From: Magnolia sinica
Taxonomy: Eukaryota > Streptophyta > Magnoliopsida > Magnoliales > Magnoliaceae
Assembly: GCF_029962835.1 (NCBI RefSeq)
Contig: NC_080588.1
Span: 65,248,001-65,312,000, forward strand
Direction: 5' to 3'
DNA: 64,000 bases
The notes below the pieces were generated by a model that was given only the letters and a program-made list of their open reading frames with translations, ran no database searches and was not told the DNA's origin. Below, in pieces: positions 23,373 through 64,000 of this stretch. The position numbers were made by a program, and so were the translations under genes. Within the stretch, counting starts at the first letter, position 1; each line of letters opens with the position of its first letter.

Positions 23373-26300
23373 ATGGAGGGCTGGGATCCGAACACGAAGT
23401 CGACTCTGACTCAGATCCCGTTGCTCTCCACCAGAGCTGGCCCACGAGATGGGCCGGCGTGGACACAGCGTCTCAAAGAGGAGTACAAATCCCTCATCGC
23501 GTACACCTCCATGAACAAATCCAACGATAACGATTGGTTTCGGATATCGGCCGCCAACCCCGAGGGCACGCGGTGGACCGGCAGGTGCTGGTACGTCCAC
23601 AACCTCCTTAAATACGAATTCGACCTCCAATTCGACATCCCTGTCACCTACCCGGCAACCGCCCCCGAGATCGAGCTGCCCCAGCTTGATGGAAAGACCC
23701 ACAAGGTCAATTTGGTTATTTTTCACCTAATGCTTCCTCTCACCTTATTCTGATATGTTTATTTGATTTATTGTGTTTTTTTTTTTTTTTTTTTTTTTTC
23801 TAATTTTTCGATTTTTGTTTTTGGAGGTTTGCAGATGTATAGAGGAGGGAAGATTTGCTTGACGGTGCATTTCAAGCCATTGTGGGCGAAGAATTGGTAT
23901 GCTATTCTTGGTCTTTGGGTTTAAGGTTTTTAGGGTTTTGTGTTTTTTTTAGGAATCTTAGTGTTTGTGCTTTTTTCTTTGGATTTGAATTGGGTTTTGT
24001 GCTACACATGTTCTGGGGGTTGTAGAAAATGTAAATATCGGTTTGCATGCAGTTGATCCAATCAAAGCGGATCTTATTAGCCCAATCCATTTCGTTTTGA
24101 GTGGAAGGAAAGGGATTGGAGAAAGTACTGCTTTTTAATGTCTCTCGATAATTTTGGTTCAAATCTTTATCGAGATTCTATCCAGGCAAAAGAAAAAAAA
24201 GAAAAAAAAAAAAGACCCCGGGGTTCAACTCCTTTCCAAACAGACCCTCTATTCATTTATCCAGGTTTGTCTTTTAGAGTTTGAGAATCTGGAGTCTGTT
24301 AATTTCATTGATTAAAATTTTCCTGATAATTAAGTATTTCAAAGATTTAGGGTTTTCTTAGAAGAGATGCTCCTTTGTTTTCCCTCTCCATAATTTCATG
24401 CCTTGCAGCAATCTCCATGGCAAATGAGGTCCACCATTTTTGTGTGTGTGTGGTCCTGTGGCCCTTACTATGTTTTGCAAATGGACTGTCAAATGTTTCA
24501 ACTCTCTGTTTGGCTGCATCTGATTAATATTAGATGCATCTATAGAAAAAGTTAGAAGAAATAGTGTGCCAATCTCTTGATGGAAAATAAGCTACTTATC
24601 GAACTGGTGGTTTGACTCAAGCTACATGATGCATAGTTAGTGAAATGCCATATGGTAAAAAAAGATGGATAGATAGTACACAGCTATATTTCCCAAATTT
24701 AAAGTAATTCCTATTCATTCTATTGTAGCTGAGTGAATTGCTGGTTCAATGTTTCACATCTTGATGCAACTATGGGCAAAAAAAAGTGAGCACAACCATT
24801 CATCAGGCCTTTAGAGAGATTCAAATTAATTCTGATTGATTCGACTGTAGGTCTCTAGCTAATGCATCACATCTGTCGATCGTGTAGGCTGTGGGGTCCT
24901 CTTTTACCCCATTTTTTGGATTAGATCTTAATGCAAATCCCGAAAGGGGAAGCAAATAAATCAATAAGAAAAGAAAGAGATTGCGGGAAATACCCAACAA
25001 TCATTTAGCCGAATGCTAGAGATCACGAATGCAAGACCGTGAGAAAGCTCAACAATCCTCTAATCTTGACCTAGAGATTTGAAATAAAAATATGAAAGAA
25101 AGAGGAAATTTCCTAATCCAGAGATTTTGAAATAAAAGGAAAGTAGTGATGGGCTAAAAAGGGAAAGCGGTCATTTTCTTGTACACACGTGTGGAGCGTG
25201 CATGCCTTTTCTTCAAATCTTGATCAATCGGCTTGTGTGCCCATTTGGTTACATCAATTTCACTCGGCTTTGAAAGCAACTCGTCCTTGAGTTTAAATTG
25301 AATCATAATCTCCTGCAAAGATCCTCATTTGTAGCACATCTTCTTCAGCTTTGCTGGTAGTTGATGGTGGAGACCTACATGCCTAACGGCTAGCTGGTGC
25401 TTAATATGGTATTGAAACACGAACCATCTTTTCAAAGGCTTCTTGTTGGTCCTCCACATTCTAGACGTTGATTGTGGCCTCTTCGTCATAGTCTGCTTTC
25501 AATTTACATACCTTCATTAATGTTGAGATGGTACTATTGTGTTGACCTCTATGGAGTTTGCTAATATGACTGGAGCACTATCCATCTCTTTGACTATTGG
25601 ATCGTCCATATCTATTAAACTTTCAGTCTCTTCAATTGGATCATCCATCAAATGATCTTTGGTTTTACTTGAATTTCCTCTGATCTGGCCATTGATCTAT
25701 CAACCAATCCAAAGAGGGATTTCTTTTGGGTTGCCACACTATCTATAATCGCATCATTCCTTGGAATGCTAAATAAAATGGATTGAAGCCCATAAAATTT
25801 TTCCCGTTCAATTAAGGGCTCAAAGTAAGCTCTCACAAACTCCTTGAGTTCCTTGAAGTCATCTGCAATATCTTCCTTGAATGCTTTTATCTCATTCTTG
25901 GCCTCCTGCAATTTCTCCTTCGACCTCTTTTGAATATTCTTAGGCTTCAGTGATATTTCCGTGCAATGAGATGCTTTTGAGTAGCCAAAATGTAGTTGTC
26001 GTTGCTCATAATATCTGGAGGGCCATTGAAAAGAATCTCTAGAAGATCCATATGAAGATGGGTGAGACTCGAGACGATAGGGGTGATAATCGTGATGGTC
26101 AGAAGGAGTCGGATAAGAAGAATGAGAAAGATATGGACAGGTAGGAAAGTCTAGATGGGGATAATTGTACGAGGCGTATGGACATCTTCCTATCCATGAT
26201 ATCTCCAAACAAGAACATAGGCTGGCTATAGGCTTGGATTCTAGATCTATGGTTGTGTTTTTTTTGTTTTTTTGGCAAGGAAAAGAGGAAGGGCAAGGAA

Positions 26301-29300
26301 TTGATGGGTGTGGGATAGGGTATAGGTTGTTTACTAGTGGAATTTGGGACAAAGATAAGGTGACAATTTAGGTGAGATGGATGTGGAGACAAAAATTGAG
26401 GAAAAGAAGAAGATGGAGAAAAGTGAAAGAGAAAAGAGGAGAAATCCCAAGAGCAGAACTTTGATATCAATTTAATGCAAACCTTAAAAGTGGTAGCAAA
26501 TAAATCAATAATGAAAGAAAGAGATTGCGGGAAAGACCCAACAATCCTCTAGCCGAATGCTAGAGATCACGAATGCAAGACCGAGCAAGCTCAACAGTCC
26601 TCTAGTCTTGAACTAGAGATTACTTTCCCTCCCTTCAACAGCTACCGTAAAGAAAGAAAAAAAAAGACAGAGAGAATCCCATAAAGAAAATGTCATTCAA
26701 CTTGTCTTATTCTATAGGTCTTATATATAATCAAACTTTACAATCTGTAATAAAAGCTGTGGAATCTAAAGATAGAATTCCTAGCTAGCCAATATATGAG
26801 AAAATAAGAAATCACCTAAATACCAGAGCATTTTAATTGAGAAAGCTCCTAAATAAGAAGCTACTTAAATAAGAAAAATATAAAATTACTCATTGCCTAA
26901 TATAAAGATATGAAAGAAAGAAAATTTCGTAATCTAGAGATTTGAAAGAAAAAGAAAGTAGCGATGGGCTGAAAAGGGAAAGTGATCCTTGTACACATGT
27001 GGAGTGTGCACGTGTGAGATGGGGGCCTTTTCTTCAAATCTTGATCAATTGGCTTGTGTGGCCATTTGGTTACATCAGATTTGGTCCTCCATCACTTTGT
27101 TAATTAGTCTCTAAAATTCTCGAGGTACAAGTGCATCATTACTTCCAATCCAATGTTCTCACAAGGATGGGTGGAGAGCATGGAGCTTGAGTGGCTTGCT
27201 CACACACTATATCCAACTGAAACAAGATTTGCTAATTACCTTAAACTAAGTTCAAGGCTATCAAATACAATCTTCCAACTTTCCACATATCTGTGCTTTC
27301 CTTGTCTAGTTATATGTGGAAGTTGGTCTCTCGCTTCATATGTTATTTCAAGGTTTAAGAAGCATTGTTCGTCTTTGGTTTTTCCATTTCTTGTTTGATT
27401 TGAGTTCAATTTGGGTTTTTTTCCCCCATATTTTTATTTTTCGATTCATACTTTGTATTTTTTAAGCGATTTTCCTTAATTATTTTAATTTTTTGCTTGC
27501 GAATGCATGGATTCAAGCAATAGGGTAGGAAGAAAGATCTACAAGCTTGACATGGAGACAGTGTGCGACCACGTTGACGTGAAGTTTCTCAACTATATGC
27601 TGGATAGGATGGGATGTTGTGCAGTTTGGAGATGGATCTAGGAATTTGTAAGTTCAGCTAGATATTCTTTGTGGGTGAATGGATCCGGGGGCTGCAGAAA
27701 CTCTTAGGAGGTTGCTGTAGAAAGCAAGAGTAATGGGCTTGATTTGCAGTTTTAAGGTGGAAAGTGTGAGATTTCAGTTTTCCTATCACTAGTTTGCTGA
27801 TGACACCTTGTTATTCTGTGATGCTAAAGAGTTGCAAGTGGACAAGCCAAGGAAGTCTTTTTGTTTGAGGTGGTTTCTGGTCCGAACATCAACATCCATA
27901 AGAGTAAGATTGTGGTAGTTAGGTTGGAACCTGTGGAGGTGGATTGATTTTCCTGGGCATTTAGCTGTAAGCCGGCTTGTCTTCCTTCTTACTTGGGCCT
28001 TCTGCTATGAATTGTCAAGCCAACGAAACACTTGTGGGACAATTATTGACAGAATCGAATTAAAGCTCTCCAGTTGGAAGTGGAGATACTTGTCATTGGG
28101 TGGCAGAATCACACTTATTAAGGCAGCCATGCCCAATATGCCACTGTTGTACATGCTATTATTCCAGTCTATGCCACTGTTCTGCATGTCATTTGTCCAG
28201 TGTCCAGCTTCAATCTTAGCACGTTGGAAAAGCTTCGTAGAAATTCTCTGGAAAGGGACAAGATGAGCATAGAGTTCACCTCGTGAATTGGAGTATGCAG
28301 GCCCACAGTGAAGGAGGGCAAGTATTGGGGATTTGAAATCTATGAATGCAGGCCCACCAATGCATTGGGAAAGTGGTTATGGTCCTTCTGGATCTTTGGA
28401 ATGAAAGGTGACAGTTTATAGAAGCAGATTATTTCCTGTAAATAAGGGTTAGAGAGGGGAGGGTGAAGCCTCTTTAGTACCCCAAAAGGCCATCTTCAGA
28501 GTTGTGGATATGTTCAAGAAAGAAACTTCATATACGGTTGGTAATGGAACCCACACCTGGTTTTGGGAGGATGTTTGGTGTGCTGATAGGCTCAGAGATG
28601 GTAAGCTCTCAGTGCTTCGATTTATTATGCGGTCATGTGGTTTAGGCTCCACCTTGTCACAGGAATCCTGATGAGTTTAGAGTTGGAGAAATGGTGGGTT
28701 TGCTGACGTTATTGCAGCTGTTCCCCCGCCACGCTTGAAAGTGATAGATGAGTTCGGAGATTGGAAATCTAAGGCAGATTCTTGTTCCTCTCCACGGGAA
28801 TCTTCTGTGCCAATGGAGTTCATTGGGTCTTTCCTAATGTAGACAATTGGCAAGTTAAATGGTGATCAAATGCATGCATTTTTTATGTCTTCGGGATGCT
28901 GAATCGGAGGATAATCTCTTTACACTTTCCCCTTTGCTATGGCTGTCAGAGGGCTTCTTCAACCTATTTCACTGTTGCTGGGTGGTGCCATAGTCGATTA
29001 GGTCTTTTTTCTTCCCATGTCATGGGGAGGAGTGGGCCCCAAAGGGAGAATTCTTGCAAGCTTGTGGTCAATTTGGGTAGAGCGTAATAATTGATGTTTT
29101 AGAAACTGATCCCGAAACCCTGATGAGGTGTTTAGGAAGGCAAAGGTGGAAGTAGTTTCTTGGGCAGTTTGCTGGTGTATTTTTTGAGAATGTCAATTCC
29201 TTTCAGTTAGTTTCCAGCCGTTTCCTTTTAATCTGTAGAGCTTTGATTTCTCGTCTCCGCTCTTCTGCTTCTAATAATATTTTCAGTTCCTGTTTCATTT

Positions 29301-29932
29301 TCTTTCTGCCAGAATCAAATACAATTTTTGTGTGCAAGCAACTTAATTTTATCGGAACTAAAACAAACCAATACAAAAGCTAAGACAGACCCCAGCACTA
29401 GCAATATTGCCTAAACAACAGCAGCTCTGCCTAGTGACTAAATGAATAGTTTAATCAAGAAGCAGAGAACTGAAGAAAAAGCAGCCAGCTATATATAAAT
29501 AAATTTCAAAAAAAAAAAAAAGAGGAAAGAAAGAGAAAGAAAACAACCATAGGATGGCACCCCAGTGTCACCTAGCCACCAGGATCAGACTCCAATCCTT
29601 GCTGATCTCTGCTACCAATTCCCCACTGCGAACCTCGTGATTCGTTGCCAGAATCAAACACATGGTATGGCATCACATGTTTCACACAATAGTAATGTAG
29701 GTACGGATGTTTGTGGGGCAGAATGATGTTGGCAAGTTTTGATTTTTGTTATCCTTTAGGATTATCATTATTCTTAATTATGGTTTGGTTTGGTTTATGC
29801 AGCCCCAGATTCGGAATTGCCCATGCTCTTTGCTTGGGTCTTGCTCCATGGCTAGCTGCAGAGGTGCCTATTCTTGTGGATTCAGGCATGGTGAAACACA
29901 AAGATGATGCAACCTCATCAGTCGAATCTTAG
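23373..29932 (+). CDS. UFC1: UFM1-conjugating enzyme (E2) UFC1
   Basis: UFC1 accepts UFM1 from the E1 UBA5 as a thioester and passes it, with the E3 UFL1, to substrates such as ribosomal protein uL24 at the ER. Three exons are complete: 23373-23705, 23835-23896 and 29803-29932 (TAG). They give 174 residues, near the usual length for plants. The catalytic Cys is residue 119 in [10 protein letters not shown] (exon 2), and the family motifs [38 protein letters not shown] and GLAPWLAAE are all present. Introns are GT-AG; the first donor, GTCAAT, is weak. Intron 1 has a 20-plus T run. Intron 2 (5.9 kb) carries an LTR element and an L1 remnant. The start chosen is the only ATG giving the family N-terminus. 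The frame is open upstream without a family match. A likely poly(A) signal is at 30011. Confidence 0.96.
23897..24928. other. UFC1 intron 2, 5' segment without elements
   Basis: AT-rich intron sequence with poly-A/poly-T runs. No exon or bounded transposon was recognised. Confidence 0.5.
24929..27077 (-). mobile_element. Small LTR retroelement (LARD/TRIM-like) in UFC1 intron 2
   Basis: The LTRs are 24929-25256 (328 bp) and 26473-27077 (605 bp; it contains about 250 bp absent from the other). On the minus strand they start TGATGTAACC and end TTGCATTA. Flanks GATCT (24924-24928) and GATTT (27078-27082) are a likely 5-bp target duplication with one change. Beside the right LTR, TTGATATCAAAGTTCTG on the minus strand resembles a tRNA-Met primer-binding site. 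Beside the left LTR, minus-strand sequence AAGGACGAGTTGCTTTC recalls the end of plant Ty3/Gypsy internal regions. No gag-pol domain was recognised. The internal region has an open frame of about 234 codons (25648-26352, minus) that ends in a charged, coiled-coil-like stretch. It appears non-autonomous. Confidence 0.7.
27540..29300 (+). mobile_element. L1-type LINE remnant in UFC1 intron 2
   Basis: Plus-strand pieces match an L1 reverse transcriptase in order: [16 protein letters not shown] (about 27570), [11 protein letters not shown] (about 27793, catalytic FADD retained), and [20 protein letters not shown] (28065). The post-RT zinc-finger-like region follows, including [12 protein letters not shown] (28227-28265). 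It is 5'-truncated and has frame breaks. It lies in the sense direction of UFC1 and only 500 bp from exon 3. Confidence 0.75.
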
Positions 29933-30010
29933 TACAGTTTTTTTTTATTATTTAAAATAATTGTAAGACCATTTACTAATGTCTTGTAATTTTAGGACTT
30001 CGGATGGACA

Positions 30011-30016
30011 AATAAA
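30011..30016 (+). terminator. Candidate poly(A) signal of UFC1
   Basis: AATAAA, 79 bp after the UFC1 stop codon. The role is inferred from position. Confidence 0.5.
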
Positions 30017-31357
30017 TTTGAGAGGCATTGAACAGTTATTTTTCTTGCAACTGTACCTTACACTGTCTAAAATGCATGTTATCTTGAAAGTCTGTGGAAC
30101 CTTGAAGTTATGTTACTGAGGTTTGGCAAGGATATGATACATTAAAAAAAAATCTCTCTCAAAAAAGAAAAAGAGATACCGTTACATAAAAAATTGTCAT
30201 CATTGGTGTAGTTGTGATGTCTGGCAGGCAGGGCCGGCAATACAGGGGCCAACGTCATTGCTTCAGGTCACCATGTTTTAGTATATTTTTCTTTTCGAAG
30301 CTATATCTACAACTGCTGTTTTGATTCCTGTTTGTTTGACATTGACTTTTATCAAAGAGACAAGGGGTGCAATCATCAGCTCAAATGAATGCTGCGCTTG
30401 GCACGTCAAGCTCTTCAGATGCTTATCAAAGCAATTGGTAGTAAAATTCCAGAGGCATGCTGCTGACTCTACATGTTTCCATGTGCCAAGCCAGCATGTG
30501 TTAAACATCTGAGCTACACGCTATATGTACGCCCCACCCTGTGATGTGACCTGGCCCAAAAATGAGGCCATGCACTCATTAGCTCCGAGCATCTGTGCAA
30601 TAATTTGATGGCTATAATAGCTTTGTTTCTTTTAACCCTCCATTTGTTTTTCTTTAAAACCATGGTCCGCATGAAGAGTAGACCAGATTGATTATTGGGC
30701 CAGCGGCACTTACACTCTGGCCCTAGCTATCTACTTACAACTTGGATGACCAACACACACCAGCTTGCATCTCCTGAGGGGAATGCCTGGGAGTACAAAG
30801 GCAACTTGAACCACGTGCAGTAATTGATTAGTTTGCATATTTTGGGTTGCTTCATCATCAACATCCTCTAAGCCTTGTTCCAACTAACTTGATGTTGGCT
30901 ACACAAATCCAGTTCTGCCATTCCACTCTGCCAAGGTATAAATACTTAAACAATGCTTTTCAAATCATTCTATCACATACCAGCAGGTGCAATATTCTTA
31001 AATCCAGATGTTTTGCTTTGCCTTTATTTCTTTTGCTTTTGCTTTTTTTTTTTTTCTTCTCTCTCCCTGTCATATATCAAAACTGCTGCTTGAGCCATTA
31101 GTAATATATCAATACAGAACTCCGTAGACTTTTGCCTTTCCTAGCTTTTGGGGGACAATTTCCTCTGTATCATGTACGTTAGACTTGATGATGAAGATAT
31201 TCAAAATTTTAAGGCCCTTCAATTGTTGTTATACAAGGTATCGTCTGGTCAAAGCATATCTTTCTCCTCTTGATCATCCTTGTTTCTATTTGAGAAACCA
31301 TTCTTCGGTTCCAATTGGCAGTATGCAATTCCTTTTCTGCCATCTGCATCTTGGGAT

Positions 31358-32502
31358 TGTTGATCAAATAATACAGAAATTATATTTTCTGTAAATATGT
31401 AAACCAAAAAAATATCAAAATTATCAAGATAGGCTGAAGCACGTATGAGAACATTGTCCTTAAATCGTTATTTGCCCATTGTCAATCAAATTGAGAATGC
31501 TGAAGGTTCTAGGCAAACAGCTTCTAAGATACGACGAGCCTGGTGTGGATCCGCGTTTAGCAAATAAGAGGATCCACTTATGGAACTCTATATACAAATT
31601 TTTGACAAATATCAAAAAGAAAAATCCCAAAATGAGAAAGAGAAATGGAAATGTTTAGACTACTGCACTAGTATGTTCTTGAGTTCTTCTGATTAAGGTT
31701 CAAATGAACTTTGCACCTTGCTGTCTTGTTGGAGTACACTGGTTTGTATGAGTATGAATTCGAGTGTGTTTGTGATGGTTTGCAAACCCATCCAGGCACT
31801 ATATATATAAGCTAGGATGGTTGACCGTTTTGGTCCAGGGCCATTAATCCACGTGATTGTTTCTAGCTGTTGGTGAGAAACTAGCTGTTATTGGCAGTTT
31901 CTGACCGTTATGTATGTGGTGTAACAGCTGCTGCATGCTGACCGTTTAGACTCATTGACTAGCCGTTTATAGCTGTTGGGCTAGCCACATGCAGCAGTTT
32001 TAGCATGGTCAGTTTTAATATGCATGAGGAGTTACACCTCACTCGAATGACTAGTTTTTTCAGCCTCTATATCAGTCACATGGGTCTCATTTAGACCTTT
32101 AGACTCATCCCAGCCACCCGTCCTATCTCTCTGTTGCACTTGTCTCGCATCGGTTCGCGTAAGGTTGTGAAGGAGCAACCCTCTGCGACACGATGCGCAT
32201 GTGCGAAGTGCGCCACTAGCACCTCTACAGCCACACTGCCTCACATACTCACGCCCTCGCACTGAGCCCGTTCCCGTGCCCGAGATCAAGCCCATGCTCG
32301 AGTGCGAGCGTGCGCGTGTTGTAGTGTGACTAAGCAATTAAAACATAAAAGTACTTCACCTTTCTCACATAAACCCCAATTTTTCCTTTCTCTTTTCTAA
32401 TGTGGGACTCTTCCCAAAACACCAAAAATGGATTTTTTACAAAACTTTTTACTATATATAAAAATTATTTAAAATATATTTTTAATTAACCTTTTTATAA
32501 CA
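31358..32502 (-). repeat. LTR of the copia element (left)
   Basis: A 1145-bp terminal repeat, the 3' LTR in the minus-strand orientation of the element. It is preceded by GGGAT. Confidence 0.92.
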
Positions 32503-35500
32503 ATCCCCCACGTGATTTTAAAATTTATTTTTTCATAAAAATATCTGCCAAAATATAAACAACTTATATGCATAAAGAAATATATTTTTCGATTTGAATC
32601 ATTCCTTATTGTAAGTATCTCAAAGCTCTATTGAAATTACTGGTAACCGCAATGTTGAATCAGTTATTCCTAAATAATAGAGTTGGAGAAATTACACACA
32701 TATTCACTTTTGTGTATATTAGAGTTCCCACAATCTTGCTCACCACAATTAATAGTCATGTGTTCATCATATTTCATGAACGATTCTGAGAGAAACTCCA
32801 ACTCTCATGAGAGACGACACCATCTCTATATCTACATAAGTAAAATCCTTCTAGTGTTTTCGTTACTATTAAGACACTTGTCCTTTAGACTGGATTTCAT
32901 TAAGAGTTCTAAGACTCGACCATCTTTCGTAATGCTCAGCACTTATCTATTATGGATGAGGTCATATATAATTTTAGTGCTAAAAACTTTCACATATCAA
33001 TAATTTGTTTTTACTCATTTAACCCAAAATTAGAAATTTTTTGATTTTAAGTTAGGTTACCATCACTGGTGGAACTTTAGTTGAAGAGTTTCAACTTCAT
33101 CCCTCTAAATGTTGCCTTTGCTACCTCTCTCGTTAGAGGTTTAGTAAAAGAGTTAGTTAGGTTATTACTTGATTTCACATAGGAAATTGTAATGATTTCA
33201 TCTTAAATTAATTGTCTCACATAATCATGTCGTAGACTTATATGTCTAGACTTTCCATTATAAGTGCCGTTATAGGCTCTAGCTAATGTGGCTTCACTCT
33301 CACAATGTGGTGACACAACCGGTATAAGGTTTATACGAAAATGAATTTCTAATAAAAAATCTTTTAGCCACTTGGCCTCTTTGCCCATTGCAGCTAAGGC
33401 TATAAATTTAGACTCCATAGTCGAGTGCGTTATGCAGATCTGTTTCTTAAATTCCCAAGATATAGCTGCACCTCATAGGGTGAATACCCACCTTAAAGTA
33501 GACTTGTTGTTCTTTGCACTCGATATCCAGTTCGCATCGGTATATCCTTTCAATACGGCCGGAAACTCTAAGTAAAGTAATTCTAAGTCTTTGGTTGTTT
33601 TTAAGTAACCAATGACTCTACTGATAGCATTCTAGTGTTACACACTGGGGTTATTAGTAAACCTATTAAGTTTACTTACGGCATATGTGATATCTGGTTT
33701 AGTGTATTGCATAGCATACATAAGACTTTTTATAGCACTCGCATAGTCTAGTTATCCAACTGCTCTTCCGTTATTCTCTTTCGACTTGATACTTAGATCA
33801 AAAGAGGTTTTTGCTTCTTTTATATTTAGATGGTTAAACTTATTTAGTATCTTCTCAATGTAATAAGATTGACACAAAGCATAACTCTCACTACGTTTTT
33901 TTTAACTTTGATACCTAGGATGATATCCACATGTCTAAGATCCTTCATTTTGAATACGGAAGATAAAAACTTCTTTGTTTCAATTACACATTCCATTTTA
34001 TTACTAATTATTAACATGTCATCAACATATAAACAAATAATAATTATACAGCTATCGTCAACTTTAGAATATATGCGTTTATCAGCTACATTATGTATAA
34101 AACCACGAGATAGTATTTTTGAATCAAGCTTCTCATACCACTGTTTTAGTACTTGTTTTAATTCATACAAAGATTTAATTAATTTACAAACTTTATTCTC
34201 ATTTTCTGGTAGAACGAAACATTCAGGTTGTTCTATGTATACTTCATTATTGAGGTTACCATTCAGGAATGTAGTCTTTACATCCATTTGGTGGATGTGA
34301 AGATGATGTATGGAAGCCAGCGCAAATAAAATCCTAATGGATGTTATTCTAGCTACAGGAGAATGTGTCAAAATAATCTATCCCTTATTTTTGTCTGAAA
34401 CCCCTAGCTACTAGTCCAGCTTTAAAGGTTTGGATAGTCCCATTAGTATAATATTTCTTTCTAAATACCCACTTACAATTTATGAGTTTAGAACCTAGAG
34501 ATAAGTTAACTAGTTCCCATGTTTGATTTGATATTATAAATTTCATTTCATCATTAATAGCTTCTTTTCGGAAAGCTAAGTCTCTAGAAGACATAGCATC
34601 ATTATATGTTTTAGGGTCATCTTTTATAGTAATTTCTATATGAATTTTTCTTATAACATTTTCTCTATCTCATTCTACAAGATGGAAAAAGATACGTTGA
34701 GAGTCTATATGGTCATCATCTAGACTCTTCTCTATTCTTATCTTTTGATTCTTACGAGGTTTGCTTGGAGCTTCCACTACCTGTGGAGCTATACTCACTG
34801 ATTCTCTATTAGGAGTTTGAACTTCATTATCCTTTGACTTTAAGGATAGTGAGTTCTTAAAGAACTCAACATCTCTTGATTTTATAATGGTGTTAGACTT
34901 TAGATCTAGGAGTCTATAAACTTTACTATTTTGTGCATACCCTACGAAGGCGCACTTAATAGCTCTGGGTCCTAACTTGGTTTCTTTTGGATTAGGAATT
35001 CTACAATATGCAAGACACCCTCACACTTTAAGATATCCTAAGTTAGGTTTTCTACATTTTCATGTTTCATATGGCGATATTTTATACTTCTTAGAGGAAA
35101 TTCTGTTTAATATGTGACATGCTGCAAGCAGTGCCTCACCCCATAGACTAAGTGGCAACTTTGCTCGTATTAGCATTAAGTTGACCATCTCTATTAACGT
35201 TCTATTTTTCCTTTCTGCTATACCATTCTGTTGCAATGTGTATGGTGAAGTACATTTTTGTATTAATCAATAATCTTCACAGAAGTTAACGAATTCATTT
35301 GAAAAGTATTCTCTTCCTCCGTCGATACGGAGAATCTTAATTTTCTTATTTAATTAATTTTCTACTTCTGCTTTATATACTTTAAAGATGTTTAATGCTT
35401 TGTCTTTACTCATTAACAGGTATACATACACATATCTAAAACAATCATCAATAAAGGTTATAAAATACCCTCTTTCTCCATGAGTAAGAATGTCGTTTAA

Positions 35501-36985
35501 CTTACAGATATCACTGTACACAAAATCCAATACTTGAGATGATCTCTTGACACTAGGAAAATGTTTCTTTGTCATTTTTGATTGTATGCCTACTTCACAT
35601 ATATCATTTTCATTATTTGTGTATGGGATTAAACTATTCTCAGTCATGAATTTTAAGGTATTATACCTATATGAGCTAGTCTATCATGTTATAGTTCAAC
35701 AGATTCAACCATATACGTAAAAGTGCTACTTTCGTTGAGAGAAAATTTAATCATACCATTATAAGCATATCCATTCTTTGATAGAATCAGTTTTCCTGAC
35801 TCGTACACAACCCTAATTCCTGGTTTACCCAGAAGATTCCCATAGACTAGGTTTCACCTCATGTCTGGGAGTGTAATACATTTGTCAGAATCACTTTCTT
35901 CTCAAAAGTAAACACCAGTTCAACGGTTCCTTTACCGACAACCTTCAATCGTACTTCATTACTTATTTAGACTTCTTAACCAATGGTCAATTCCTCATAG
36001 GTTTTGAAAGCTGATCCGTCGTAACAGATATGTACGGTAGCAGCAGTATCGTACCACCAACTGAAAACTTTTTCTTGAATTGTGTTCACTTCAGTGATCA
36101 TTGCCACTATATCGACTTCTACTACACTAGCTTTTTTTTTTTTTTATGTGCGATATCGGCAAACTCAAGCATAATGCCCGGTTTTTCCACAAACATGGCA
36201 ATGACCTTTGAATTTTCTGTTCTTCTTCTGAGTTTTCTTTAATTTCCATTTATTGAGTTTCAGGGAATCATCATTCTCGGGATTCTTGTTATTAATATTC
36301 TCTACTGCATGTACTTTGGACGAGGAATTCCTATTTTCATTTTTGTTTTACGGTTGCAAGATTCTTCCTCAATTCTTAGATGTTTCTGGATTTGTTTCAG
36401 TGTGTAATATTTAGTCTTATGCAACAACTTCTTTTTATAATCTTTCCACATTAGGGGTAACTTTGCGATAATAGCCCTGACTTGGAATGACTCAGGAAGA
36501 TCAATTTTAATGATCCTGATTTTATTTACAATTAGCTGCAATTCTTGGATTTAAAGCAGCAACGATTTATTATCTACCATGTTATAGTCGAAGTACCTGG
36601 CTATTTTGGTACCTTCTTCTTCAGCTTTGTATTTGAACTCGAGGGTGGTCTAAATTTCTTTTGAAGACGATGTTTGCGTGTACAGATCGTACGAACTGTC
36701 AGAGAGCGCATTTAAAATGTGTTTACGTTACAAGAGTTCATCTTCAGTTTGTTTGTTGCGAGCAACAATCACTTCAGGTATGTCCTCATCGGTAGCTTCA
36801 GACAGTAGTTGCAGACTTGGATATAGGATGTAAAAGATCCTTAAGGCCGTCAGAAGAAATTCGATCTTGTCTTGCCACTATGTAAAGTTGGTTCCATTGA
36901 ACCGATCAAGACGAATCAAATCCTGATTCATCAGTTTGATGGAAGATACGCTTTTGGCTTCCATCTCAAAATAACGCTTTAAGAT

Positions 36986-38102
36986 TGTTGATCAAATCAT
37001 ACAGAAATTATATTTTCTGTAAATATGTAAACCAAAAAAATATCAAAATTATCAGGATAGGCTGAAGCACGTATGAGAACACCGTCCTTAAATCGTTATT
37101 TGCCCATTCTCAATCAAATTGAGAATACTGAAAGGTTCCAGGCAAACAACTTCTAGGATACGACGAGCCTGGTGTGGATCCGCATTTAGCAAATACGAGG
37201 ATTCACTAATGCAACTCTATACACAAATTTCTGGCAAATAACAAAAAGAAAAATCCCAAAATGAGAAAGATAAATGCAAATGTTTAGACCACTACACCAG
37301 TCTGTTCTTAAGTTCTTCTAGCTAAGGTTCAGATGAACCTTGCACCTTGTTGTCTTGCTAGAGTACATTGGTTCGTATGAGTATGAATTCGAGGGTGTTT
37401 GTGATGGTTTGTAAACCCATCTAAGCACTGTATATATAGGCTAGGATGGCTGATCGTTTTGGTTCAGCGCTATTAATCCACATGACTGTTTCTAGTTGTT
37501 GGTGAGAAACTAGCTGTTATCGGCAGTTTCTGACTGTTATGCACGTGGTGTAACAGCTACTACATGCTGACCGTTTAGACTCATTGGCTAGCCGTTTATA
37601 GCTGTTGGGCTAGCCACATGCAACAATTTCTGCATGGTCAGTTTTAATGTACACGAGGAGTTACACCTCACTCGAACAGCTAGTTTTTCTAGCCTCTATA
37701 TAAGTCACGTGGGTCTCATTCAGACCTCTAGACTCATCCCAGCCACTTGCCATATCTTTCTGTCACACTGCGACTCGCACCGGTTCGCGAAGGAGCGACC
37801 TTCTGCGATACGATGAGCACGTGCGAAGTGCAAAGTGCGCCACTAGCGCCTTTAAAGCCACACTGCCTCAGATGCCCACACCCTTGCACCAAGCTCGAGC
37901 CCAAGCACGGAACACGCAAGCCCGATACACCATAGACCAAACAATTAAAATATAAAGGTACTCTACCTTTCTCATATAAACCACAATTTTTTCTTTCTCT
38001 TTTCTAATGTAAACTATTCCCAAAACACCAAAAATAGGTTTTTGCAAAACTTTTTTATACTATATATATTATTTTAAATATATTTTAAACCTTTTTATAA
38101 CA
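36986..38102 (-). repeat. LTR of the copia element (right)
   Basis: A 1117-bp terminal repeat, the 5' LTR in the orientation of the element. It is followed by GGGAT. Confidence 0.92.
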
Positions 38103-38317
38103 GGGATTGTTGGATTGAATTCCCATGTTCTAGATCAGCAAATGGTTGATTCTCCTCAGATGTCGAGACGTGAGGCATCTCTTGGAGGTTAGGTTTTTGT
38201 TACAATCCCGATAGTTTGAGCCTAGTTTGGCACATTTCATAACTTTTGGCGCTTTGTGTATTGGTTAAATTTTTAACAATTGATATTAAGAGCTAATACT
38301 ACATCATGTGTTTGAGT

Positions 38318-38904
38318 TAGGGGTGTACATCGAGTCGAGTTGGCCTCAGCTCGACTTAGCTCGGCCACTAGCTAACCTTAGTTCGAACTCAGCTCGGCTC
38401 AGTCTTTGAGCTTGACTAGCCAGCTCGGCTCGGTTCGGTCAGCAGCTCAGGCCAGTTCGAGCCAAGTTTGAGCCGAGTTCGCCTGTGCAACATTTTCACA
38501 AACACCTGGACTGCACCTTCAAAATCTCACTGTATTTAAGACATTAGCAATGGTTTTACATGTATTTTATCAAACACTTTCTAAGCAACATAAAAATCAA
38601 GAAAAAAAGGTATTAGTTTTAAATACATACCTTCCTTGCCACCAGCCACACTTCGTTGGGTCATTTCATCAAACACTTGGTGAGCAACATCAATATCAAA
38701 GTAACCGAGTCACTGGACTTCCGAGTTCAATTCGAGCCGGGTTCGATCCAAGTCGAGTTGGGTTGGGGCCAGCTCGAACTCATTTCCGAGTTCAAAAAAT
38801 CAGCTCAACTTGGCTCGAACTCAGCTTCGAAACGAGCGGAATTGAGCTTTTTCGAGTCTAGTCAAGCGAGCTAACCGAGCTAGCTCGGTCCGTGTACACC
38901 TCTA
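38318..38904. mobile_element. hAT-type MITE
   Basis: The TIRs TAGGGGTGTACA (left) and, on the other strand, TAGAGGTGTACA (right) match at 11 of 12 positions. A perfect 8-bp target duplication, GTTTGAGT, stands at 38310-38317 and 38905-38912. Both the TIR type and the 8-bp duplication are typical of hAT. The 587-bp interior has no coding potential and is full of AGCTCGGCTCGA-like repeats. It lies inside a larger unidentified insertion (38196-39049) in the KEA3-tail duplicate. Confidence 0.9.
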
Positions 38905-39240
38905 GTTTGAGTCATGGAAATGTTTACTCGTGAAAAGGGCTATCAGATGCCACCAGGCTCCGAGAAAAACTACTTAGAACTACTATCCCCATATTTAAAA
39001 GAGCCGAACTTGATGCTTTCCATGAGTCCTGTGGGCGCATGGTTGGGTTCTTAACATTTTTTGGTGTGGTTCTTGATCCATGGAAATTGGGGCCTTGTCT
39101 GGCCCGGCCTCCACCAAGTCAGCGACGCTTACCTGCCTCAGTTGTCCATTGTTTTATTAGAGATGCAACCACTTCAAAATTTCATACCATGAAATTGAAA
39201 CAGAGGGCATGCTATGACACTACCTGTTATGGTGGATTTG

Positions 39241-41511: not shown

Positions 41512-41575
41512 GCATATCACCGACTGTATGGGTTACTAGTTGCTACTGGAGTGAGTTGCATGTTGCACCCACTAC

Positions 41576-42323: not shown

Positions 42324-45300
42324 ATGCAGATATTCGTGAAAACCCTAACGGGGAAAACCATAACTCTCGAAGTCGAGAGCAGCGACACCATCGACAACGT
42401 CAAGGCTAAAATCCAGGTTCCTCTCTCTCTTTCTCTTTCCTCTTCTTCCTCTTCTCCTTCTTCTTCTTCTCTCATTGATATTCTGCAGGACAAGGAAGGA
42501 ATCCCACCAGATCAGCAGAGGTTGATTTTTGCTGGGAAGCAACTGGAAGATGGCCGAACCCTCGCAGATTACAACATCCAGAAGGAGTCTACTCTTCACC
42601 TTGTCTTGAGGCTTAGGGGTGGAACGATGATCAAGGTTAAGACTCTCACTGGGAAGGAGATCGAAATTGACATCGAGCCTACTGACACCATCGATCGGAT
42701 TAAGGAGCGCGTTGAGGAGAAGGAAGGGATCCCTCCTGTGCAGCAAAGGCATGCCTTTTCTCACACTTGTTGTCGTTTCATGATTCACAATATCGAGTCC
42801 TCTCTGATGGATTTTGCTGTCCCTTTCTTGTTTTTCTTTTCCATCCTTATTCGTTGGGCTTGCACAATCGTAGTGACAATTCTCGTTCTTGGCATGGGAA
42901 TTTCTCATCTGGTTTTCGGATTATGATGTTTTTCTCATGGTAATTATTTTATCGGGAAAATCTCACCGAGAATAAAAGATTAGAAAAGAGGATTAATTTA
43001 AATTTAGTAAGTTGTAAAATTTAAGATATAGGTAAAAATGGATTAGTTTAAACTTCTATCTATTTCTTTTGTTGAGACCTTGGTAATTTCTTGCTAAAAT
43101 CAGGAAAATTAAAATCTGCCTAGATTTTGAGAATCTTGTGATACTATCTTTTGATGAATTTTCTGTGCAAATACAGAGGGATTTTCAATATCTCAGTGAC
43201 ATTGCTCACATGTTCTGAAAATCGAATTGGATCATAAAATTGTAAGAGGGTCTGAATCATAAAACTTAAAATCATAAGATATATGCAATTTTCCATAAAA
43301 TCATAGAAAAATGTAAATAAATATGCAAGAATTATAAAAAATTGAAAATGATTAAATCTACACTTTTTTTTGATTGTAGGGTGAATTAACTCTTTCCCCT
43401 GTGTTCATACGCATAAATTTTTTTATACCATCCCATGTGCGTAGATAAAGTTTGCTATTGCTAGTCTTCTTGATCGCATTGGCTTCAACTTCCCTCTTTA
43501 TTTTTCCAAATGTTCTAGTATCAAATTGATGTAGTCTGCCATGCATGAGGCCTAAACGTTGCTTTTCTCCTTTCTATTAATAATCTGTTGATCTTCACGT
43601 AGGAGCTCATGTTATCTGTGATCGCCTGTATACCATTCTCTTCTCCAACTTAAATTACAACTAAATCTAACATTAACAAAAATTGTCGGCATTCTTAACA
43701 ATTACCTGATTTGTCAATGCTTGTTAAAAATACTGTGCTACAGTGCTAGATTGACTACTTACTAGAAAATTAGTAATTTAACGGTTCTTTTCATCAATCC
43801 AACCATCAAACTCAATGGTGCGTCCCTCCTACCTGTTCTTCTCTAACTGTTTCTATATTTTCAAGTATCTGCTAAAAATTTTGCACCTCTCCATCTTCAA
43901 AAAAGTATTTCTTATCTCATGGTAAGACATTAACTTTAGTGCTTGACCAAACGCCACATTCGATTAGCATGCTGGTGCAAGAAAGGTCTTCTTACAAAAT
44001 TGAAAGGGAGAACATCTGCATGAAAGAATTTTGCAATGTCCAAGCATAATTTTTCTGTACTTCCATCCAGACAACATTTAATGTTGCTTGCTTCCCATCT
44101 TGACAATATTTCATCGTATGCTCATCTATGTGGCCCTTTTCCTTTGATTGGCGCTTCTCTCTATTCTCCTCATCCTCTTCTACTAGGGCCTTGTCATGAA
44201 CCACCACCCACTTTATATAGAGAGCTTCATTCTTTCCCTTTTTGCATCAACTATTCATCTCGAAATAGTTAGAAATTTGACTTGGATTTTGTGTGTTCTG
44301 CATGCATGTTGCAACATTTATTCTTGTTCGAGCGAGGTTGTTCTTCATATGGAAGACACCATCATGGTATTGCTGCAATAGATACATTGCAAATGTTGCT
44401 TATAATTTGGGTTCACAGTTGTACGATATTCCCATGTTTCATCCTCATCATTGCTTTTACCAGCGCGGTGGTTTAGTTCTACACATTCACTGTCATCACA
44501 GACGAAAGCCATCCATCACTCACCAATCACCATTCACCAAATTAATTAACCATCCAGAAAAAAAGTTCACCAGTCACCAACAAATTCAATAAACTCATTC
44601 ACAATAAAGAAATCCCATCCACTATGTAATCCATCCCATCCACATCCACCATAAAGAAATCATATCCACCATTTAATCCATCCATCCACCATAAGACCAC
44701 CCATCTACCATAGAAAATTAGAAATACACACATTTCATCACATAGCAACAATGCAAAGAAGAAGAAATGAAATCAATACACATATCAAAGCAATAAAATA
44801 AAATACATTAGCTTGGGAGGAAAGGATGTTTTATAGAAACACTCCAGAAAAAAAACAGAAATTGATTTGGATTAGTCATTGAAAAGTGTTGGGGGGGGGG
44901 GGGGGTGGGGGTGGTTTGCTGAAAATGGGAGGGCTTACACACAAAAATACATGGGAGGGGTTTTCTTTTCAAAAAATAAAATAAAAAAAAGAAGGAAAAA
45001 AAAAAAGAAAAGAAAAAAAAGAAGGAAAAGTAAAGAAGAATTGAATAAAAAAGAAAAAACCACCAGAAGCACTTGCTGTATAAGGGTTTTATTACCATCC
45101 AATAGGATCGTAAAATTATGATTTTGTTCACATAATTCAATCCCCAATGCTATTCATTAAGTGATTTTAATTGTTTTTCATATGATTCAAGTCCTGAATT
45201 GTATGATTTTAACAACATTGGGCATGTGGTACATGGGATTCTTCTGTATCTAATTTTGACATGCTTCTTTTGTACTATTATTTTCTTTTTGACATTTTTC

Positions 45301-48300
45301 GTACTCGCAATCATGATTTATATGCTATGGGCTAGTTGAGATTTCTGTGAAAAGCGCCACTTCACTTCCTCTTGTTGAGATACAATAATAGATGATCCTT
45401 GTTCTTTATATTTTTGTTGCAATTGATTGGCTTTTTTATGAGGCTATATATATATATCGTCATAGCCTCATAAAAAAAAGAAAAGATAAATACTTTTTTT
45501 TAGTGTCTATGAGAACTTATTCATCTATACATACTGTTGCCTAGACGTATAAATACTGGTTTTGCTTTTTTTTGTAAGTCATTGTTGGAACATATTCACC
45601 CATACTAACGTTTGAGAGCTGCACTTTTCTTTCGGATAATTTTGATTAGAACTTGTCTATCCATTATGATGTTTACTGTCATATCTTTACTTGTGTAAAG
45701 CATTCTTCCATCGGTTTCTGTTAGAGCTGCTTGATTGTCATCTCCTTCTATGTCTTTAAGGAAAAGAACTAAAATGTTTGGATGAGAAAAAAAGAGTTGC
45801 AAGAAAATGAAAAATCTCTCTAGTGTATGGAGTAAAATGCTATAAATTAACAAGGCTGTAGGTTTTTCCTCTAGGAGTTAAAAATCAGCAAAATGCACAA
45901 AAAAAAAAAAAAAAAAAAAAACCACTTAATGCTTTCCTTGTGGTTGCTATAGGAACATGCATACAAAGATTAGGTGTTTTTGGCTTCTTCTTCTTCTTCT
46001 TCTTCTTCTTTTTTAATGAATAGGAACAAAGCAATTTATTTTTCTTTTTATTTTATAAGAGGAGGAATACAAAGTTGCTGAAAATAAAATTAGAAAAAAC
46101 AGCCCTTGGCAAAATTGTCAGTGTGATTGCCCACCAAACGCCTCCAACTCAAAGACTTCAATGACATCTTCCAAAGAATTTCACCCACTGGGCCCCCGTC
46201 TCCTACCTTCCACTTAGTGCAGAGCCCTGAAACCGATGATGGGATCACCCACTAGATTTTTATTTTTTTGAAGGTTAACTGGTATTTCATTAATAAGCGA
46301 ATACAATCCTAAATTTACATCCCAAAAAGGAACTTGAGCTTACAAGCATCCACTGTTTGTAGACCGGAAGCTCATTCTGCCACTTCCCTCTTGAAAACAA
46401 CACCTATTCCTCTCCCCCCGTATCTTGCTCTCTCCTCCTTTCTTATCCTTTCTCTGTGCCATGCCCATAGTAGTTCTTTAACGGTCTTTGTCATCACCCA
46501 ACTGATATTAAAAGTCCTTAGGGATTCCTCCCATACCTTTACAGTGAATAAGAAGATGATTGACCATTCCTTCATCTTTCATGCACATAGCACAGTTATT
46601 CGATATAATCCTAGATCTCTTTTGGAGGTTATCTATGGTGAGGATTTTCTCTCTTCCTGCCATCCATAAGAAAACCACTGTCTTGGGAGGAGCCTAATAC
46701 TGCCAAAATAAATAAGCATGCTCCAAGCCTGTCTCTGATAGTGATTGTCGAATCCTGGAGTAGGAAGACTGCACCAAAAAAATGTCCTGGTGGGTGGACA
46801 TTCCATACCATTGAGTTTTTTTTTTTTTGTAACACACGCACACTCCCTCACGCCGTAGTGGGATTTCACCACCTATGGATACTCGAACCCTTGACCGGGT
46901 GTTGAAACTCCTGAGAGTCTACCACCGCAGCAGGAGTAAGGATCCATTGAGTCTTGTGTTAGACTAGGTGGTAATGCTGCAAATGCTCTAGTAATCTGGT
47001 GATGTCATCTACTTCCTCCTCTAGTAAGGCCTTGTGACAAGGACACCATGCTCAACCATCTCCACATTGCGAATAACGGCAAGCCACTGTTATGTTCTTG
47101 TCCATAGCCAACCATGCCGCTCTCAATGGTCCATCCATGCACCACACATCCTCCCTGAATCTAATGCGATTTCCATCCCCAAGCTAAAATGATACCCCCT
47201 CCTTAAACTTAGGAGCTAAGGAGATTTGCGTTCCACATTCCTGATGCCCTATAACTGACACAATAATCCCCCAACTGTGATAGTCTTGGAAACTCCGCTC
47301 TCAATGGTCCATCCCTGCATCATACATCCTCCCTGAATCTAATGCGATTTCCATCCCCAAGCCAAAATTACACCTCCTTAAACTTGGGAACTGAGGAGAT
47401 GATTGCCTTCCACATACTTGATGCCCTGAGATTTGCGTTCCACATTCCTGATGCCCTATAACTGACACAATAACCCCCCCAACTGTGATAGTCTTGGAAA
47501 CTCCGCTCTCAATGGTCCATCCCTGCATCATACATCCTCCCTGAATCTAATGCGATTTCCATCCCCAAGTCAAAATTACACCCCACCCCCCCCCCCCCCC
47601 CCAAATACGTCCTCCCACTTCAGTAGGTGAAACTAGTGCCTATTCTCAGCTCCTCTCCGTAAGAAATCTTGCCTCAACTTCTCCAATTTATCCAAAACAG
47701 ATTTCGGACATCCCATATTTTCACAGTGAATGAAGAGGCGAGCAACGTCTTTTGCAGCTACTTGCACATGAAACATCTGTTTGAGATCATCAACCACCTC
47801 TGGTACAAGATCCACCATTGAAATATCATGTAAACAAACCAGACAATGAAAGGTTTTTACCTTCATTGGAGCATCATTGTCCCAGATCACCGTAGCCCAC
47901 CCAATGCAATTTCCAGTACAAAGTTGTCCAAGCCTTCTGAAGTTTTTGGTTGTGAATAAGCCATCCGCCTCAGGAACATAGATGCTACAGTTACCTGTGT
48001 GAGCAATGTAGCTCACAAACTGGGGATCTCGTCTTTCAAATTATGTCCAAAGGTTGGAGCCCAAACATCATCCCTACTTGATCTTCGAACGAATCGATCA
48101 ACCGTACCATCTACGCATGGAGCAATCCGAAACAGTGGCTGAAACATGAACTGGAGAGGGATTTCTGATCACCAAACATCTTTCCAAAAATGAGTCATTG
48201 CCCCAGTCCCAGCCCTACATCTGGCATTCTTCCAGAAAACCTGGAAAATGTTAGAGATGGCTTTCTACTGCCCCCTATCCTTGTAGCCTGCCCTGACATC

Positions 48301-49537
48301 CCGCCCATTTTTATTTATTTTTACTAGGCTATGTTTACATTCCAGGATAACTTTCACCATGGAAGGGTCCCTGCAACTGAACCTCCACCATTTTGCTGGG
48401 AGGGCCATGTTAAGATCCCGTGTCGAAATTATCCCTGAACCCCCAAGTTCGATCGGCTTGCAGGCCCTGACGAAGCCACCAAAAGGAATTTGTGATTTCC
48501 CCTCCATTTATCATAGGAATCTCCTTTGGATAGCTTCCAACTTGGCTACAACTTTCTGTGAGCATGTAAACAGGGACAGCATGTACACCAGGTGTTATTG
48601 GACTTGTAGTCCTCGGTGAATTCAAGCTTTGTTTTCTTTTGGTCAAACAATTTGAACAACATGCCCCTTATTTAGGAATTCATATCCAGGGGTTTTCAGT
48701 TGGTTTATCCTTTTCATTATGAGTATTTTTCCAAAGATTAAAAAAAGCCAAGTACATTCTCATTATAAATCTTTCAGTGTGTCTGGATGGATCCCAAACT
48801 GCAAGCATTTTGCATAACCCACTCACAACCTCACTTGCATTAAAGATGTGTACCATTAATTCCAGCCATTTGGATAACCCACTCATGACACCACTTGCAC
48901 AAACTAGCGCATCAGGACAGGTGTTTTGATGCATTAGGTCCTTATAATTTATCAGAATTAGGGTGGAAAAGAAGGTGAATTATTTTTCACAGGATTCAAA
49001 CTCTTAGATATTTTGCTGCTGCCACTCATGTGGACCAATAATGTTCGATAGCAATGGATAGTTAAATAATTATTTTAACCATTGATTTTTAAGTTATGTT
49101 CTCCTGACCATCTGAATTTTAGGCCACCCCATATTACACAAGTATTAGAAGCTCTAGGAAGAATATTATAAATACTGAAAACTAAACTGAAGATTATTAT
49201 ATTTTGGGTTGTTTCAATAGATTTAACTTTGTAATGTTCCAAATGATCAATGATATCAAGATGTTATTCAATATTTTTACGTAAAATTTAAGTCATTATA
49301 CTGATGCGATGCTTTAAAATTATTGATGTTTATAATTAAATGTATAAAAACGCTATGTTTCCCTTGTATTTGCTTTTTTATAATCAAATTTATAAAAAAT
49401 TTCGTTACTTCTGAATTTCTGATGCAGAGTCTGCTTTCTCAGCAGATTCTCCTATCCTTTTCCTGTAATTTCTCTTTCATTTAATACAAATTTTGTTACT
49501 TCTGAAAAAAAAAAAAGATTTATAAAAAAATTATATT

Positions 49538-49576
<39 letters not shown>

Positions 49577-52771: not shown

Positions 52772-53277
52772 AGGGCCCCACCATCTCATGAACTTGGAAC
52801 CACCAATGTCGGTGAGACCGTGACCGCAGCGGCCACCTTAGACTTGGATCTGCCTAATTTTTTGGAACCCGTCCTAAAATGGGATGGATAAACAGGATAA
52901 ACGGATAGATGGCATAGATATATACAAGGCATCAACAAGGTGGGGCCTACGGAAAGGGTAACACCCACCAAGGTGTTACCCGGGCAACAGCCAATCCGCG
53001 CTCTGATGTGAGGGCTCCCATTGGTCCAACGGTTCAAATCAGAACAACTTGCCCATCTCGGTCGGCCACATGTGGCCAAATCAAATCTCACCAAGTCAGG
53101 CCTAACGGAACTTTGGTGTTTCCTGGCATCACCGAATCTGTGGAGGAACCGGATTCAGTGAGGCTGAGGAAATACCCAATTCGTCTAGGCCTAAGGGGAT
53201 TTGATTGGTCCAGCCTAGCGTGTGAGTTAATTGGATTGACTGTGTCGCGCAAGGATGTGGCCATAAGTGAAGCAAGG

Positions 53278-53547
53278 TAGGGCCCACCATGACATTTGTG
53301 AGAAATCCACTCTGTCCATCCATTTTGCCAGCTCATGTTAGGACTTGGGACCAAAAATGAGTAGCATCCAAAACTCAAGTGGGCCACACGAGTGCAAAAA
53401 GTGGGGAAAGAAAAGCTTACCATTAAAACCTTCTTGAGTCCACCTTGACGTTTATATGCCATCCAAACCCTTCATAAAGTTACACCCACTAGGATGAGCA
53501 GAAAACACAAAAAATTAGCCTGATGCAAAACTTCTGTGGCCCCATGA
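53278..53547. mobile_element. Left part of another palindromic MITE-like repeat
   Basis: It begins TAGGGCCCACCATGACATTT, then ATCCACTCTGTCCATCCATT and GTGGGCCACACGAG. The mirror-image right arm is absent; it runs into the KEA3 3' flank. A right-arm piece of the same family lies at about 52845-52955. Confidence 0.65.
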
Positions 53548-55046: not shown

Positions 55047-55483
55047 TGGCTTCATAACCACATAATCTTGCTCTTCAGCTCTATTCATTGAATCTTTGGC
55101 CTGAAGCTCCATGGATTCTCTTACAAGCTGGCTCAAGAAATTTACATCGTCGGACATGACACCCAGCCCTTTCAAAAGCTTCGAGCCAAGCTGTAAACTA
55201 GTCTGCATTTACACCACGATGACAACAACAACCAAGCAACAATAACAACAACATAAGAGTAATGTGACAATGTAGTATGCTCAGAAATTCCACAAGAAAG
55301 AAAGTTTAAGGAAATAGAGAATGACAGACAAAGTTAAAATGACATTTTCGGTTCACATATACAGGGGGAGCCATCATTTCTGTGACTCAGATAGTTAGTC
55401 CCATGAGCCCATCATGAACATGAGCCCATCATGAACAGAACATGCCCCAAATGTATCTTCCATAGAAAAATATTTCCCATCTG

Positions 55484-55544
<61 letters not shown>

Positions 55545-57972: not shown

Positions 57973-58004
<32 letters not shown>

Positions 58005-63946: not shown

Positions 63947-64000
63947 CTGCAAATATCAACCAGTGGGGATCAAAGTAGTTATCGACTTGATATTTTTTGT

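What the first reader, a model, noticed from the sequence alone, without database searches (positions are those of the whole stretch)
30388..39240. A direct duplicate of the KEA3 tail lies 16-23 kb away, between two other genes
The KEA3 last exon, last intron and about 1 kb of 3' flank recur in the same order and orientation beyond the ubiquitin-RUB gene. One edge of the duplication falls within a few bases of an exon-intron border. The copy still aligns over the coding tail but has been split twice. The parental 3' end lies on the far side of another gene, so this was not a simple adjacent tandem event. KEA3 tail forms matter for its regulation, so a second copy transcribed from the same strand could be a source of small RNA or antisense to KEA3.
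Basis: seen in the sequence. Interest (0 to 1): 0.72.

Follow-up and report, generated by a model that had tools for sequence, protein, structure and literature searches.

The report
Broken partial copy of KEA3's tail
An old, incomplete extra copy of the end of a chloroplast ion-transporter gene lies a few tens of kilobases from the gene in a large plant genome; later jumping elements have cut it into three pieces, and it looks like an ordinary dead gene fragment.

Summary
KEA3 is on the minus strand. Its last 108 codons, its last intron (91 nt) and about 1.1 kb of 3' flank (window 53544-55049) recur once, in the same orientation, as three pieces (30385-31357, 38108-38198, 39058-39232), 78-86% identical by piece. 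A genome search with most of the tail and its flank, repeat-bearing part left out, finds only the gene and this copy (3 of 3 candidates).

Both splits are transposon insertions: a Copia-type LTR retrotransposon (31358-38102, 5-bp target duplication, RVT_2 domain), and a small insert holding a hAT-like element with an 8-bp target duplication.

The copy keeps the intron, so it is not an ordinary retrocopy. Its frame is broken and it lacks the KTN/TrkA_N domain. It is a local, non-processed pseudogene fragment, older than the LTR insertion.

One correction: the left limit of homology is a junction in the parent, where a dispersed repeat is cut off with a 7-nt microhomology (ATGAATG). The copy's UFC1-side flank may be the older context of KEA3's 3' end.

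The small-RNA/antisense idea has no support here: same-strand transcription would give sense RNA.

The parts
53544..55049 (-). Parental segment T: KEA3 last exon (54623-54949 with stop), last intron (54950-55040), 8-9 nt of the penultimate exon, and about 1.08 kb of 3' flank
30385..31357 (-). Copy piece 1: 3' flank and the distal part of the coding tail
31358..38102 (-). Copia-type LTR retrotransposon in the copy; LTRs 31358-32502 and about 36985-38102 (86.5% identical at aligned sites); RVT_2 on the minus strand
31353..31357 (.). Target-site duplication GGGAT (second copy at 38103-38107)
38108..38198 (-). Copy piece 2: middle of the coding tail, with an 18-nt deletion against the parent
38199..39055 (.). 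Second insert (MITE-like by its look; T-runs at both sides, weak terminal repeat GTTAnnAnCCC) that separates pieces 2 and 3; ends approximate
38318..38904 (.). hAT-like element nested in the second insert; termini TAGGGGTGTACA/TAGAGGTGTACA, 8-bp target duplication GTTTGAGT (38310-38317, 38905-38912); the label hAT is from recall
39058..39232 (-). Copy piece 3: start of the last exon, the whole last intron and 8-9 nt of the penultimate exon
53269..53550 (.). Member of a highly repeated dispersed family, cut off at the left limit of the parent's homologous segment; ATGAATG at 53544-53550 is shared by most inspected family members and by the copy (30385-30391)
23373..29932 (+). UFC1 coding region (Pfam UFC1 in its first and last pieces); the copy starts about 450 bp after its stop
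42324..50449 (+). Ubiquitin-RUB fusion gene lying between copy and parent
54623..64000 (-).

Best explanation
It is an old, partial, non-processed (DNA-level) duplicate of the 3' end of KEA3: a pseudogene fragment without a function of its own. Shown: one extra copy of the tail in the genome, same orientation, intron kept, sharp right edge, two transposon insertions, broken frame. Inferred: it arose in a local break-repair rearrangement. Also inferred, at about 0.7: the parent's left edge is a microhomology junction, so the copy's UFC1-side flank is probably the older neighbour of KEA3's 3' end. Either the ubiquitin-RUB block came to lie between two copies of the tail, or the parent's old flank was deleted afterwards.
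For: Collinear alignment including the 91-nt intron. Single extra copy of 54440-55100 genome-wide (3 of 3 candidates). The splits are a Copia-type element with GGGAT target duplications and an insert with a nested hAT-like element with an 8-bp duplication. Frame damage: both inserts interrupt the tail, and a 1-nt insertion near its end brings an early stop. Order of events: the LTR element lies inside the copy; pooled non-coding K80 of the duplicates is 0.193+-0.019 against 0.153+-0.013 for the LTR pair, transversions per site 0.067 against 0.035 (Fisher P 0.003). dN/dS of the tail pair is 0.60 (bootstrap 0.32-1.24), compatible with one constrained and one free copy. Parent junction: 39 of 39 long non-self hits of the repeat family stop at window 53536-53552 (40 of 6786 candidates scored, 25 further hits are short). 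In 4 of 5 fetched members (L019, L020, L022, L023) the sequence past the GAATG runs on alike from member to member and unlike KEA3's flank; the row for the fifth, L021, showed another piece and says nothing. ATGAATG is intact in 3 of those 4.
Against: No stop codon occurs in the 99 codons compared in the parent's frame; simulation gives a 0.19-0.40 chance of that without selection, so it is weak. By part the duplicates' K80 is uneven: 0.126+-0.035 (near flank, 123 sites), 0.188+-0.051 (intron), 0.199+-0.029 (coding), 0.213+-0.024 (far flank); the near flank is no more diverged than the LTRs. All differences pooled give only P 0.064, and transposon methylation may change LTR rates. PMC7935947 (passages) did not find proximal pseudogenes to be especially fragmented. 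No relative's genome could be compared and no RNA data seen.
Confidence: 0.88

Rival explanations
1. A copy of the tail was made as filler at a break between UFC1 and ubiquitin-RUB (synthesis-dependent strand annealing), with ubiquitin-RUB already next to KEA3.
For: Fits the present order; gene fragments copied as filler at breaks are a proposed source of plant pseudogenes and moved genes (PMC7935947 and PMC3445842, passages). No homology beyond either edge (left score reached by 195 of 200 shuffles, a shorter left stretch by 152 of 200, right by 119 of 200).
Against: It leaves unexplained why the copy's left limit falls exactly where the parent's own sequence is a cut-off repeat joined through ATGAATG, unless the break fell there by chance. 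PMC7935947 ties the filler model to dispersed rather than proximal copies (passages), and the filler sizes given for maize in PMC2686159 are small (passages).
Confidence: 0.3
2. Tandem duplication of a larger unit (KEA3 to ubiquitin-RUB) with later loss of one KEA3 body and one ubiquitin-RUB.
For: Would give a single microhomology junction on the parent's left side, as seen.
Against: No ubiquitin, RUB, UFC1 or non-minisatellite KEA3 peptide match in 100 kb right and 60 kb left of the window, and no other KEA3 exon remnant in window 1-55040. A lost copy cannot be excluded.
Confidence: 0.12
3. The copy regulates KEA3 through small RNA or antisense RNA.
For: 20 perfect and 206 near-perfect (2 mismatches or fewer) 21-nt windows exist in the alignment; UFC1 read-through would cross it antisense; 38 rice gene-pseudogene pairs were proposed as sources of such small RNAs (PMC2708354, passages).
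Against: No transcript evidence; about 17% of aligned sites differ; no sequence sign of selection on the copy; insertions separate the pieces. KEA3 already has a convergent neighbour whose read-through would match perfectly (inference from gene order).
Confidence: 0.03
4. The match is only a dispersed repeat or an assembly duplicate.
For: A short dispersed repeat is present inside the parental segment and a related piece in the copy, and others adjoin them.
Against: 54440-55100 has one other copy in the genome; 78-86% identity and separate insertions exclude an assembly duplicate.
Confidence: 0.01

Closest known systems
Non-processed (duplicated) pseudogenes of plants, 'proximal' class (PMC7935947, passages)
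   Same: Partial, intron-bearing, disabled copy of a gene within 25 loci of its parent
   Different: That paper finds proximal copies often share flanks and are not especially fragmented; this one is a fragment without shared outer flanks
Gene-fragment insertions by break repair with filler DNA (PMC3445842, PMC2686159, passages)
   Same: Gene piece copied over a short distance, sharp edges, no transposon ends found
   Different: Filler sizes quoted for maize in PMC2686159 lie between 1 and 131 bp; here about 1.2 kb, and which side received the new sequence is unresolved
Patch-mediated tandem duplications (Vaughn and Bennetzen 2014, seen only as a reference entry)
   Same: Direct repeats created at a break (by its title and my recall)
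   Different: Length and the intervening gene exceed what I recall for that class; not tested
Pseudogene-derived antisense siRNA pairs of rice (PMC2708354, passages)
   Same: Gene and diverged duplicate in one genome
   Different: No RNA evidence here; the copy lies in the same orientation as its parent

Membership tests
Non-processed pseudogene fragment | Significant homology to a parent gene in the same genome | tested here: met
Non-processed pseudogene fragment | Parental intron retained | tested here: met
   91-nt intron aligns in full within 39058-39232
Non-processed pseudogene fragment | Disabled: missing exons, broken frame, insertions | tested here: met
   no other KEA3 exon found outside the gene in the window
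Non-processed pseudogene fragment | Not expressed as a functional product | not testable with these tools
   No RNA data
Processed (retro-) pseudogene | Loss of introns | tested here: not met
   intron present; copying from unspliced RNA is not excluded
Transposon-captured gene fragment (Pack-MULE type) | Terminal inverted repeats and target duplication enclosing the fragment | tested here: not met
   No inverted match between left flank 29930-30385 and right flank 39233-40400 (searches C and D, E up to 1); very short termini would be missed, and Helitron ends were not tested
Copia LTR retrotransposon (31358-38102) | Paired LTRs with TG..CA ends, target duplication, Copia-type reverse transcriptase | tested here: met
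   that RVT_2 marks Copia is from recall
Small-RNA-producing regulatory pseudogene | Antisense small RNAs from the copy with sense RNAs from the parent | not testable with these tools
   No small-RNA data

The most novel reading that the evidence does not exclude
UFC1 read-through crosses the copy on the + strand and yields antisense RNA or siRNA that pairs with the KEA3 coding tail and 3' UTR, linking UFC1 transcription to KEA3 level; the stop-free compared codons of the copy would then be partly due to selection.
Probability: 0.02. Interest if true: 0.55.

Novelty: new member of a known kind. Interest (0 to 1): 0.14.

Why it matters
By itself it is an ordinary gene fragment. It is a clean worked case in which nested insertions order the events and a repeat family exposes a junction, and it warns annotators that KEA3-like sequence near UFC1 is a dead copy. 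If relatives show KEA3 next to UFC1, it would document how a ubiquitin-RUB gene came to lie between two copies of a neighbour's tail.

Tried and rejected
Rejected: dispersed-repeat artefact; retrocopy of spliced RNA (intron kept); capture by a transposon with terminal inverted repeats (short ends could be missed); homology continuing left of the parent's repeat or right into KEA3 (left score reached by 195 of 200 shuffles, shorter left stretch by 152 of 200, right by 119 of 200); remnants of ubiquitin-RUB, UFC1 or other KEA3 exons elsewhere in window 1-55040 (the only KEA3-body hits are a minisatellite at 1.1-1.65 kb; the ubiquitin and RUB parts hit each other); a second ubiquitin-RUB next to the locus.

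A region of contig C12 with partial RUB copies was examined for ancestral gene order. The 30 kb read there gave no KEA3 or UFC1 exon match, so it does not decide the polarity. The KEA3 paralogue search (protein 59317-59700) did not complete, so KEA3 copy number rests on the tail searches only. An inverted-repeat test of the repeat at the parent's left edge gave only a weak score, with no control.

Dating: with the Liriodendron intergenic rate of 1.51e-9 (PMC6784881, passages) the K80 values would give about 64 My (duplicates) and 51 My (LTRs), and half that at 3.02e-9. The organism was not identified; Magnoliaceae is my inference from the genome size and from contigs C1-C19 being the ones with hits at megabase coordinates, so these ages are illustrative only.

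Full report
What was checked. The window is G000:C16:65248001-65312000 of a 1.84-Gb genome in 127 contigs. KEA3 runs on the minus strand. Its last intron is 54950-55040 and its last exon 54623-54949, 108 codons and a stop. The homology stops 8-9 nt inside the penultimate exon. Pfam supports UFC1 in pieces at 23.2-23.8 and 29.7-29.9 kb, ubiquitin domains at 42.0-42.9 and 50.2-50.4 kb, and Na_H_Exchanger plus TrkA_N in the KEA3 gene; the last exon has no Pfam match at E 0.01.

Not a dispersed repeat. The whole tail gives 43 matches, 4 to gene or copy and 39 to a short repeat at about 54310-54421 (40 of 2397 candidates scored). Window 54440-55100 matches only the gene and the copy (3 matches, 3 of 3 candidates scored). 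The UFC1 3' region is single (1 of 1). The stretch right of the copy has only short dispersed pieces elsewhere (40 matches, 40 of 52 candidates scored).

Why it is split. Piece 1 ends at a Copia-type LTR retrotransposon, 31358-38102. Its LTRs are 86.5% identical at 1108 aligned sites, it has TG..CA ends and the target duplication GGGAT on both sides, and RVT_2 on the minus strand. Pieces 2 and 3 are parted by an insert of about 0.86 kb that itself holds a hAT-like element, 38318-38904, with 12-nt termini matching at 11 positions and the 8-bp duplication GTTTGAGT. The outer insert's ends are approximate, and the labels hAT-like and MITE-like are from recall.

State of the copy. The intron is kept, so the source was DNA or unspliced RNA. 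The coding tail is interrupted by both inserts, has an 18-nt deletion, and has one extra nt near its end that gives an early stop. In the 99 codons that can be compared no stop occurs and dN/dS is 0.60 (bootstrap 0.32-1.24). Chance absence of a stop has probability 0.40, 0.28 and 0.19 for 27, 40 and 53 neutral substitutions, so this is no sign of selection.

Timing. By part, K80 between the duplicates is 0.126+-0.035 (near flank), 0.188+-0.051 (intron), 0.199+-0.029 (coding, with one intron base) and 0.213+-0.024 (far flank). Pooled non-coding parts give 0.193+-0.019 and the LTR pair 0.153+-0.013; transversions per site are 0.067 and 0.035 (Fisher P 0.003), while all differences together give P 0.064. 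So the divergence supports the order only in part; that the LTR insertion came later follows mainly from its lying inside the copy. Ages with Liriodendron rates (PMC6784881, passages) are illustrative, since the species is not identified.

Which edge is new. Just left of the parent's segment lies a member of a very large repeat family (6786 first-look candidates, 40 scored, 65 matches). Of these matches 1 is the window itself, 39 are long and all of those stop between window 53536 and 53552, and 25 are short and end earlier. Five members were fetched with their flanks. In four (L019, L020, L022, L023) the sequence runs on alike past the point where the window's member is joined to KEA3's flank; the row for the fifth, L021, showed another piece. 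The seven bases ATGAATG, 53544-53550, stand at that point in three of the four (L022 has ACGAATG) and at the copy's left end, 30385-30391. This is what a microhomology-mediated join on the parent's side would look like. Two histories fit: a block with ubiquitin-RUB came to lie between two copies of the tail, or the parent's older flank was later deleted through the 7-nt repeat. In both, the UFC1-side flank of the copy is the older context of KEA3's 3' end. A third history, a copy inserted as filler beside UFC1, remains possible if its break fell by chance at the repeat's end. A larger tandem duplication would predict a second ubiquitin-RUB nearby; none was found by BLAST in 100 kb to the right or 60 kb to the left.

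Function. Antisense would need + strand transcription, for example UFC1 read-through, since UFC1's stop is about 450 bp before the copy. The alignment holds 20 perfect ungapped 21-nt windows and 206 with at most two mismatches, so cross-pairing is possible but nothing shows that it happens. In Arabidopsis KEA3 has three splice forms; KEA3.3 lacks the KTN domain and KEA3.1 misses 153 C-terminal residues (PMC6624313, passages). The TrkA_N (KTN) match is not in the duplicated part here.

Known or new. Non-processed pseudogenes close to the parent are a standard class in plants, and break repair with copied filler is a proposed origin of gene fragments (PMC7935947 and PMC3445842, passages), though PMC7935947 ties that origin to dispersed rather than proximal copies. 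One search for KEA3 with pseudogene and duplication listed two papers, a rice CPA family survey and a paper on plastid NDH loss (listing only); I make no claim about what is or is not in print. I file it as an ordinary new member of a known kind.

Noticed in passing
window 1130-1653 and 62951-63522; L025 about 160-800; L027 about 4520-4720: The same minisatellite-like repeat (read as [19 protein letters not shown] in one frame) occurs near both ends of the window, inside the KEA3 gene body and again to the right of the window.
   Followed up: no
G000:C12:8292171-8292435 and 8305039-8305286 (L041, L042, L046-L048): Two further copies of the RUB last-exon region on C12, same strand, about 13 kb apart, one with pieces matching the 3' flank; no good match to the first ubiquitin exons in the 30 kb read, so these may be another case of a gene-tail duplicate.
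   Followed up: partly
window 4031-5468: A 1.4-kb stretch matches its own reverse complement at 75%: a large palindromic or fold-back element.
   Followed up: no
window 16729-17395: A direct repeat of two units of about 340 bp, 95.6% identical; part of it is related to 13.7-13.9 kb and 46.8-46.9 kb.
   Followed up: no
window 40400-42020: The region upstream of the ubiquitin-RUB gene holds many mutually related dispersed repeats in both orientations, also found near 52.5-53.5 kb and in the 100 kb to the right.
   Followed up: no
window about 42750-50340: The RUB part of the ubiquitin-RUB gene is interrupted by an intron of about 7.6 kb (from ORF coordinates).
   Followed up: no
window 55487-55542: A perfect 56-bp TA repeat in a KEA3 intron about 440 bp upstream (in KEA3's direction) of the duplicated segment.
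   Followed up: no
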